A DNA stretch of 64,000 bases from Dysidea avara (lineage: Eukaryota; Porifera; Demospongiae; Dictyoceratida; Dysideidae): positions 1,545,437 through 1,609,436 of the forward strand of contig NC_089281.1 in NCBI RefSeq assembly GCF_963678975.1. Direction: 5' to 3'. A program made the position numbers and the translations under genes. Below the pieces are notes generated by a model. That model was not told the origin of the DNA, made no database searches, and saw nothing but the letters and a program-made list of their open reading frames with translations. This document shows, piece by piece, positions 28,101 through 64,000 of this stretch; within the stretch, counting starts at the first letter, position 1, and each line of letters begins with the position of its first letter.

Positions 28101-31100
28101 AAGTTTATAAAGGTATTTTTCAGATACTGATGTGGTTTTCTAAAATACCAATTTTACTGAAGTAAATTAAACTTTTGATGGTTTAGTGGTGGCAATACAT
28201 GAAGTCAAACTGCCAAGCTCCATGCAGACATTATAGAAGCACAGACTACTCTGTGTATGGATACAGAAGATCTTCCCACTTTTAGGATACTTACAACCTT
28301 GGTGTGTGATTGTCATTTGTATTCCTTTTACTACAAACACATGTATGAGTGTAAATCGTAACTTACCCATCTTGTGGAGAGTATAAGAGGTATTTATTTT
28401 GTCTTAATGCTGTACTGTTATTCAAAAATGCAGTACCGCCCATCTCTAGTGATACCTGTTCTGATCAGGTTACTGTGACCTGTCTAAACCAGCCAACAGC
28501 CGACCTTATTACACAGTGAAGTAGCCTTATTAAGCAGGTGGCTACATTAGGCAGGCCACTTCTTGCACTAATGACACATTAGGGGATTTTCAAGTTGTCT
28601 AAACCAGCTTTTACACGCATTTGGTAAGGTCAGAATTTACGTAATGATCTTTACTAGTTTTGAGTTCAAAGGAGAGTTATTGAGAGCAATTAAGAAACAA
28701 TGAGTGTTGGTGTATGTTCTATTAGAGTAGTTGACCAGAGCTGTATATGTTAATGACGTATAGGCTCCAACAATTCACTTAACTGAACACTTTATTGTCT
28801 AAGACCATCGAGGTCTAGTAGAAGAGTCTATTTCATGTGTAGTACATGTCCTACCCTCCATTGACTCTGTGACGGGTGACACGCCCCTCTGTTTGTCCAC
28901 AGGTCACTACACTCCAACAGGGACCCCATATCTGATGCTCCAGCATTGTACTTTGTACTTCCTAATAAGGAGAATGTCTCAAGAATATGTCAGGTGTGTG
29001 CAGCATTATATAGAATAGTTTACTATTATATGTAGGTGGTAATATGTGCACTAGATGTTGTAAATGTTGAAAATATGAATTTACTTTAAATAGGCACAAT
29101 TTATCCATCTCAAATGAGGCTTTGGGATTTTATCTTGCTTGCAAAACATGCTAGAAGTGTGCAGTAACTATATAAATATTAGGTGGCCGTGTGTTTTATT
29201 AGAGACTCGTATAATCAGGCCAGTGTTTTTAAGCCAGTTTCCTGAAAATGTTTTCCAAAAAGTGTGTGTGTATGTGTGTTTGTTTCTGTGTCTGTCCACA
29301 CACCCACACTTGTGTAGCAAAGAAGCCTTGTGCCAGTCTGAGTGCTTTATAAGCCTTGTGATAAACTTACATGCAGGTTAGCTTCACTCTGTGTCATATA
29401 CTTCACACCAGTTTTAGATACAAATGAAAATGGTTTCTGAATACAGTGTAAACAGTTTATCTGGTAGGCTATAGTGTAGGCTATATGGGTGTTGTAACAA
29501 CCGAAAAACAGCAGTGCAGGCCTTGTGGGCTACCAGACAATGTATATCCTTTTGAGTTAAAGGGGGCATGTCCCTCAAATGAAAGTGAAGGGCAGACTTG
29601 TGAAAGTTTTCTCATGTGAACGTGTCCAGATATCTGGTTAATTGTTGATTGGCTTCTCTTTATATTTTAGCGTGTTATTATCTCCTACCAGGATCTCCAC
29701 AACAACTTGTACGAGAGTTACTACTTCAACTTCATCTCACCGATATCACGTTCATTGTTGGAGGATTTGGGGAAGGCTGCACTGGAGGCTAACTGTGTAC
29801 CACAAGTATCCAAGGTAGCCATCTTGTTCTGTTGCTAGGGTAAAGTATACTGTGCTTTTACAAAAACTGTGCACCTTGGTTATGTGCCCAAATATACAGT
29901 GACTATTTGATTCTGAGAGCAGGTGTGTGTGTATGTATGAAATGGGTCCTGATTATCTAAACAGTTCACTTTTGTGAACACTTTTATCATTACCTGATTC
30001 AAGTCTCAATGCATTTGTAAAGTATAGTTGATTGTTTCATTTGGGTACAGTGCATGTAACAATTCTACACACAACTTCTTGTTGTACTGCACCCTGTGTG
30101 GTAATAATGTCCGTTTAGTGCTTAATCAGATTTAAAGTAATCCCAATATAAAATACTAATTTTATAGTATGGGACCTGTTAACATAGGCACCTACTGTAC
30201 ATATAATTCATACACTTATAGCAGTCTAAGTTAAAGTACGTCAGTGTTTGGTTAATTTTGATGTATCAAAATTTTTTAAAATTATTCCCATTCCGGGAAT
30301 CAAACCTGGGCCTCCTGGGTGAGTGCCAGGAATCCTAACCACTAGACCAAATGGGACATTTATGATGGGAAGAGTAAGTGTATACAATACATTAACCTGT
30401 TATTGTGGACTTCCTAATGTTGCAACATAATTGACATATAAAATGATCTGGGATGATCCTTTATGATGGATGCAGACATCAGTGTAATGCAATTTTGTAA
30501 TTCTTCACAGTTAAAGAGCAAAGAAAAAAAGTTCCCATTCCGGGAATCGAACCCGGGCCGCCTGGGTGAGAGCCAGGAATCCTAACCACTAGACCAAATG
30601 GGACAACCATGATGGGAAGAGTAAATTTTTATGCTTTGTACACAAAAAATAAGAGAATAACAAATATGGCCAGTTGGCCACATGCACCTGCTTAATCAAG
30701 TTGAAAAACTTTGTCATAATGTTACCAGATTAGAACAGTACGTCTATGATACACCTGTGTGAAATGCTGAAGTAGTAGTGTGTGTACTAATACTCTTGAG
30801 AATGAGCTATATTGTAACTCCCAGTAGAGAGGTGCATGTGCACATTGAGTAGAACATTGTACACAAATGAATTAGCAACTCGACCCCATGCCAGCATTGC
30901 TGTATGTACAAAAAGGACAAGTCCACGAGAATAGTAGACTGAAAGATGTTATCTGGTACAACCAAGAGTGAATGTCACCATGTCAACTTAACTAGTTGTT
31001 TCATGGGCCTGGCCAACCCACCTTTTTAGACAAAAACATTTCTTAATTTAAAAAAAATTATTGCTTTATTGTCTCAGCACAAACCTTGTACTACTTTTTA

Positions 31101-63110: not shown

Positions 63111-64000
63111 TGTTATTCTGCACTCTCAACCAATTTTCCTCTTTGTGTTCATAGTTTCTCATCTGGCATTAGGATTTTTTTTTGTTCTGAAATTTTACTT
63201 TTAAAATTCTAGAAAATTATTAATTCTTCTCATGGTAATGTAAGCACTTTTTATAATTTCGTGACTATGTACATACACACCTGTAAGGAAAGTGTCAATA
63301 CAGAATCTGATAAGTTTTCTTGCACAATCTCTAGGATAGGGTATAGGCAGAGTACAGAGGACAGGTATTCATCAGAACCCCAAAGGGCACATGCCACAGG
63401 TGAGTTTATTGACACATAAAATTTTAGTTGTAAAATGCATTTTAAGCATCTAGTTTTTCAGCTGTGGTCAGGCAGGCAAGCAGGCCGACCAAATATTGGG
63501 GTTTGGTATGTTTTAAAAAGAAATTCATTATTATGACTTGCGAAGGCTTTCATAGTTTCAGAGCAGTTATTTTTACATAGCAAATGGACTTGAATTATGT
63601 CATTATATATTACCTCATTGTTGTTATGAGATTAACCAATACCATCTACTGTTATTATTAGACAATTGTTACTAACTTTAGCAGCAAAATACGATTGATC
63701 ATAACATGCCTTTTGTGGCTATTTAATACATTCAAATGTCTTTTATGTACAAGTTGAAATTGTTGTTTATGTGTGTCTAGAGAACTGGGAGGGGATAGGT
63801 AAGTCATCTTCAGGTCTTTTCTGTCTTGATATCATCTTAAGATCCATCTCTCTGCATCTGCAATAGTTTATAGAGCAACAGTAATAATGGCTACAATTGT
63901 TAAGTGCTATAGCCACTTGAGGATACCTACATAACCCAGACACTAATATTCATTATGATAGAACAATATCCATTATGGTAGAACAAGTCATATCATGATT

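What the first reader, a model, noticed from the sequence alone, without database searches (positions are those of the whole stretch)
30466..64000. A 7-9 kb direct segmental duplication carries one SCFD1 exon and tRNA-Glu genes past the end of SCFD1
Copy A (introns 5-6 and exon 6) is colinear with copy B, which starts about 570 bp beyond the SCFD1 poly(A) signal and still matches at the window edge. Both copies have private insertions and losses, and tRNA genes have decayed differently. This points to a real, ageing duplication of an internal gene segment into the neighbouring convergent gene's territory.
Basis: seen in the sequence. Interest (0 to 1): 0.8.

Follow-up and report, generated by a model that had tools for sequence, protein, structure and literature searches.

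The report
Duplicated SCFD1 intron segment with tRNAs
A 7-9 kb piece of the SCFD1 gene, holding one exon and a run of glutamate tRNA genes, appears again just past the end of the same gene; it is an ordinary-looking segmental duplication, except that its left half has diverged about three times as much as its right half.

Summary
A 30466-37700 and B 55280-64000 are colinear in the same orientation, in nine main blocks, four with E = 0. B starts about 570 bp past the SCFD1 AATAAA, carries an intact-looking exon 6 (two substitutions in 88 nt, both splice sites kept) and still matches at the window edge. The gene is SCFD1/Sly1. B lies about 390 bp behind a minus-strand kelch-motif exon, probably in a convergent gene's last intron. 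The copies are not uniformly aged: the left, tRNA-rich part differs at 7-8% of sites, the right at about 3%, with one sharp step (gain 35.7; largest of 500 shuffles 8.2) at a structural break. In the left part divergence does not track distance from tRNA genes. I favour one old duplication followed by gene conversion of the right part. Exon 6B (88 nt, frame-shifting) is probably a passenger; whether exon 7 follows lies beyond the window. The flanking genome was unreachable, so an assembly artefact is disfavoured, not excluded. Low-to-modest interest.

The parts
30466..34638 (+). Copy A, left (more diverged) part: SCFD1 intron 5 with the antisense tRNA-Glu array; about 7-8% different from B
34758..37700 (+). 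Copy A, right (less diverged) part: rest of intron 5, exon 6, part of intron 6; about 3% different from B
55280..58513 (+). Copy B, left (more diverged) part
59359..64000 (+). Copy B, right (less diverged) part, still matching A at the window edge
35976..36063 (+). SCFD1 exon 6 (88 nt), original
60502..60589 (+). Exon 6 copy: 2 substitutions (1 silent Ile, 1 Thr to Ala), open frame, AG acceptor and GTACAG donor kept
30531..30603 (-). tRNA-Glu (CTC) A2; its B partner at 55345-55415 has lost 2 bases at the anticodon and is called neither by ARAGORN nor by Rfam
32261..32333 (-). tRNA-Glu (TTC) A3 (63.2 bits); partner B3 55690-55762 weaker (52.1 bits)
32928..33000 (-). tRNA-Glu (CTC) A4; partner B4 56150-56222; both score 63.9 bits
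34180..34253 (-). tRNA-Glu (TTC) A5 (65.4 bits); partner B5 57925-57997, the best-scoring tRNA in the window (67.7 bits)
37045..37117 (-). tRNA-Glu (TTC) present in A only (segment 36915-37272 is absent from B)
58514..58587 (-). tRNA-Glu-like gene present in B only (listed by ARAGORN, not reaching the Rfam gathering score); A keeps only a matching flank, 34586-34638
34668..34768 (.). Dispersed repeat in A next to the divergence step (93% identical to 3282-3381)
58645..59029 (.). Inverted-repeat element in B (18-nt arms, 94% complementary) next to the divergence step; no match elsewhere in the window
60600..62690 (.). About 2.1 kb of nested inverted-repeat elements present in B only, starting about 10 bp after the exon 6B donor
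54763..54889 (-). Last coding exon of a convergent kelch-motif gene (exon start read by eye from an AG acceptor, not verified)

Best explanation
A direct segmental duplication copied the tRNA-Glu array of SCFD1 intron 5, exon 6 and part of intron 6 to a site about 25 kb downstream, probably inside the last intron of the convergent kelch gene. The left copy boundary, as BLAST draws it, lies 65 bp from a tRNA-Glu body; tRNA genes are known fork-stalling, breakage-prone sites, so a fork broken there is a plausible start (inferred). Later the right part (at least 2.9 kb in A) was re-homogenised between the copies by non-allelic gene conversion, leaving an 8% part next to a 3% part (the step is shown; the process is inferred). 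Two of four paired tRNA genes in B look decayed, each copy holds one tRNA that the other lacks, and exon 6B is most likely a passenger without function (inferred).
For: Colinear blocks. Step: 179 of 2152 against 69 of 2463 aligned sites differ, Fisher P = 6.9e-17; the BLAST pieces give 157 of 2182 against 74 of 2565. Best single changepoint at A 34631 / B 58506 (183 of 2198 against 69 of 2470), gain 35.7 against at most 8.2 in 500 shuffles. Indels 14.1 against 6.5 per kb; non-CpG divergence 7.5% against 2.2%; GC 37.3% and 37.6%. Not simply a tRNA-proximity effect: in the left part, sites more than 400 bp from any tRNA still differ at 19 of 281; in the right part, sites 101-400 bp from a tRNA differ at 13 of 514. 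Yeast work reports some segmental-duplication junctions in or beside tRNA genes (PMC2518615, 12 of 20 passages shown).
Against: No outgroup and no third copy were available, so gene conversion cannot be told from a second duplication. The right breakpoint is outside the window. The left breakpoint shows no long homology that would name a mechanism. The shuffles treat sites as independent. The tRNA-proximity test is weak in the right part: its only nearby tRNA (37045) exists in copy A alone. The two alignments differ in the left part (block 34047-34431: 40 of 374 by MAFFT, 27 of 372 by BLAST).
Confidence: 0.6

Rival explanations
1. Assembly artefact: copy B is the other haplotype of the SCFD1 intron 5-6 region, wrongly joined behind SCFD1 in a highly heterozygous animal.
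For: About 3% difference in the right part is in the range of allelic difference in very polymorphic invertebrates (recalled). B is open at the window edge, so it could run on into the rest of SCFD1. Genome and reads could not be reached.
Against: No N in the window. The stretch left of B (54610-55290) matches nothing else in the window at E 1e-3, so it is not a copy of A's left flank. The divergence step and the many structural differences are not what one allele pair predicts in the simplest case.
Confidence: 0.17
2. Two independent duplications: the tRNA array was duplicated first (8%), and the exon 6 segment later (3%) landed beside it in the same order.
For: The step coincides with a structural break: a dispersed repeat in A (34668-34768), sequence found only in B (much of 58514-59358) and a tRNA that A lacks.
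Against: Needs the second piece to land colinear with the first. A short link (34586-34638/58460-58513, 91%) keeps the order up to the break.
Confidence: 0.18
3. One duplication, with the left part mutating faster because tRNA transcription is mutagenic.
For: The fast part is the tRNA-rich part.
Against: Divergence does not fall with distance from tRNA genes inside the left part (0 bp: 17 of 293; 1-25: 16 of 198; 26-50: 12 of 200; 51-100: 33 of 364; 101-200: 39 of 430; 201-400: 43 of 386; over 400: 19 of 281). Indels step too.
Confidence: 0.05

Closest known systems
Intrachromosomal segmental duplication with later non-allelic gene conversion
   Same: Kilobase-scale direct copy on the same sequence, private insertions, mosaic divergence
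   Different: Only one pair is visible, so conversion is inferred, not shown; with gaps counted, the left part is below the 90% identity often used in genome surveys (recalled)
Yeast replication-based segmental duplications (BIR and MMIR), PMC2518615 (passages seen)
   Same: Intrachromosomal duplications, some with junctions in or beside tRNA genes or microsatellites
   Different: The passages seen speak of duplications around 115 kb arising in yeast assays; here 7-9 kb and old, and the mechanism cannot be read from one visible breakpoint
Clustered eukaryotic tRNA gene arrays (recalled)
   Same: Same-isotype genes in one orientation with turnover and decaying members
   Different: The array lies antisense in a protein-coding gene's intron and was copied together with a host exon

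Membership tests
Segmental duplication | At least 1 kb of sequence present twice, colinear | tested here: met
Segmental duplication | At least 90% identity (survey convention, recalled) | tested here: inconclusive
   Substitutions alone: 91.7% and 97.2%, though one left block is at 89.3% in that alignment. With gaps counted the left blocks are 80-89% and the right blocks 93-95%
Segmental duplication | Both copies present in the real genome, not only in the assembly | not testable with these tools
   No reads; genome search unanswered
Non-allelic gene conversion | Tract with sharply lower divergence than its colinear neighbour | tested here: met
Non-allelic gene conversion | Copies within a species closer to each other than to their orthologues in the tract | not testable with these tools
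   No orthologous sequence of a related animal was available
Functional duplicate exon (alternative or fusion exon) | Frame-preserving length | tested here: not met
   88 nt, read as starting in phase 0 and ending in phase 1
Functional duplicate exon (alternative or fusion exon) | Compatible neighbouring exon in the copy | not testable with these tools
   Exon 5 (29689-29817) lies left of the copied span; exon 7 (41158) lies beyond A 37700, where the window ends for B
SCFD1 (Sly1) gene | Sec1-family coding exons, best match SCFD1 | tested here: met
   Sec1 229.2 bits; best solved-structure match Sec1 family domain containing protein 1, then Sly1

The most novel reading that the evidence does not exclude
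An intronic tRNA-Glu array acts as a repeated break and template-switch site, carrying a piece of its host gene, exon included, into the neighbouring convergent gene, after which the copies exchange sequence only on the tRNA-poor side. The sharp 8%/3% edge beside a tRNA gene missing from one copy would mark where such exchange stops.
Probability: 0.2. Interest if true: 0.4.

Novelty: new member of a known kind. Interest (0 to 1): 0.22.

Why it matters
It is a readable case of how tRNA arrays and gene fragments may spread locally, and a warning that one 'age' per duplication can be wrong: the two halves of the same pair would give dates differing about threefold. It changes no known principle.

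Tried and rejected
Transcription-linked mutation near tRNA genes as the cause of the fast left part: disfavoured by the distance table. CpG sites or base composition as the cause: rejected. Further divergence steps within each half: not established (22 of 300 left and 130 of 300 right shuffles reached the observed gain). Exon 6B as a working extra exon: disfavoured by its 88-nt length; exon 7 could not be looked for in B because the window ends first. In the search with the recalled SCFD1 protein, B gave exon 6 and one chance-level hit (61687-61785, 27% identity, E 4.5). Another kelch exon to the right of 54.9 kb: none evident with the 54.8-kb exon or a recalled kelch consensus as query. One search also took 8 further ORFs (7 of them right of 54.9 kb): 7 had no Pfam match and one a sub-cut-off match (AAA_lid_4, E 0.096). 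One search listed 85 ORFs of at least 45 aa in 54650-64000; most were not scanned.

Papers: no paper in the library holds all of SCFD1, segmental duplication and tRNA; none holds all four terms on tRNA-linked mutation. Of the listings only PMC2518615 was opened (12 of 20 passages). The organism was not identified; SCFD1 at roughly 40-86% identity per exon to a recalled human protein and a metazoan SRP RNA match suggest an invertebrate animal (inference).

Full report
Observation. A blastn self-comparison of the 64-kb window and a finer comparison of 29000-40500 with 54600-64000 confirm a direct, colinear duplication. Copy A runs from 30466 to at least 37700 and copy B from 55280 to the window edge. 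Four of the nine main blocks have E = 0. Private sequence interrupts the chain: about 1.35 kb in A (30807-32151), a CA-repeat expansion in A (32544-32781), about 570 bp in B (57227-57793), exchanged segments around A 34432-34757 / B 58168-59358, about 2.1 kb of nested elements in B (about 60600-62690), and 36915-37272 in A only.

Genes. The source is SCFD1. A recalled human protein finds exons from 25.4 to 52.8 kb, and joined exon translations match Sec1 (229.2 bits) and, best of the solved structures, SCFD1 and then Sly1. The last coding exon, read by eye, follows an intron made almost wholly of a 13-bp minisatellite (52835-54604, about 136 copies). AATAAA is at 54707. On the minus strand, 54763-54889 encodes a kelch motif ending in a stop (Kelch_1 26.7 bits, cut-off 20.1). 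Copy B starts about 390 bp behind it, so it probably sits in that gene's last intron, but no further kelch exon was evident in the window.

Exon 6 in B. It differs at 2 of 88 positions, one silent and one Thr to Ala, and keeps both splice sites. Its length is not a multiple of three, and a 2.1-kb insertion begins about 10 bp behind its donor. Exon 5 lies left of the copied span, and the window ends before the place where a copy of exon 7 would lie, so the absence of neighbours says little. Its preservation is about what 3% divergence predicts, so it does not show selection. I take it for a passenger (inference).

tRNA genes. ARAGORN finds ten tRNA-Glu genes, all antisense to SCFD1; Rfam finds nine tRNAs above its cut-off. 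Order and anticodons agree between copies: CTC, TTC, CTC, TTC in A at 30531, 32261, 32928, 34180. In B the first is broken (two bases lost at the anticodon), the second weakened (52.1 against 63.2 bits), and the other two score as well as or better than their partners. A holds one at 37045 that B lacks; B holds one at 58514 of which A has only the flank. Aligned tRNA bodies differ at 17 of 293 sites, little less than their surroundings, so selection on both copies after duplication looks weak.

Two ages. Leaving out gap columns, private segments and two simple-repeat stretches (A 32740-32790 and 36064-36152), the left part differs at 179 of 2152 sites and the right at 69 of 2463 (Fisher P = 6.9e-17). 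The BLAST pieces, without the simple-repeat exclusion, give 157 of 2182 and 74 of 2565. The two alignments differ most in block 34047-34431 (40 of 374 against 27 of 372). The best changepoint is at A 34631 / B 58506 with gain 35.7, while the largest of 500 shuffles was 8.2; no second step was established (22 of 300 shuffles reached the gain on the left, 130 of 300 on the right). Indel events are 14.1 against 6.5 per kb, and divergence outside CpG 7.5% against 2.2% at equal GC. Inside the left part divergence does not decline with distance from tRNA genes. The test is weaker in the right part, where the only nearby tRNA (37045) exists in A alone. So tRNA-linked mutation is a poor explanation, and a second event is the better one: gene conversion, or failing that a second copying. 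The step falls at a structural break: A has a 101-bp dispersed repeat also present at 3282-3381, and B has an inverted-repeat element and a tRNA that A lacks.

Mechanism. The left boundary, as BLAST draws it, is 65 bp from a tRNA-Glu body in both copies. In yeast, some junctions of spontaneous segmental duplications were found in or beside tRNA genes and at microsatellites, with fork stalling proposed as a cause (PMC2518615, passages). This makes a broken-fork origin plausible here; with one visible boundary it remains inference.

Artefact. Without reads or the rest of the assembly (not completed) a haplotype misjoin cannot be excluded. The step in divergence, the many structural differences and the different left flank speak against it.

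Verdict. A correctly seen, fairly ordinary segmental duplication; the new point is its mosaic age.

Noticed in passing
52835-54604: The last intron of SCFD1 is almost entirely a 13-bp minisatellite (about 136 copies, 94% matches; intron read by eye).
   Followed up: partly
23456-24817 (-): A minus-strand open frame upstream of SCFD1, so a divergent gene, encodes a RALGAPB N-terminal domain (133.5 bits).
   Followed up: partly
14691-14987 (-): Full-length metazoan SRP RNA match (217.7 bits).
   Followed up: no
60600-62690: Nested elements: inverted-repeat pairs with 41-nt and 34-nt arms lie side by side inside a pair with 113-nt arms; the one at 60801-61206 has a 74% relative at 14034-14383.
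   Followed up: partly
41252-42091: An 840-bp TG-rich repeat starts within a few bases of the end of SCFD1 exon 7.
   Followed up: no
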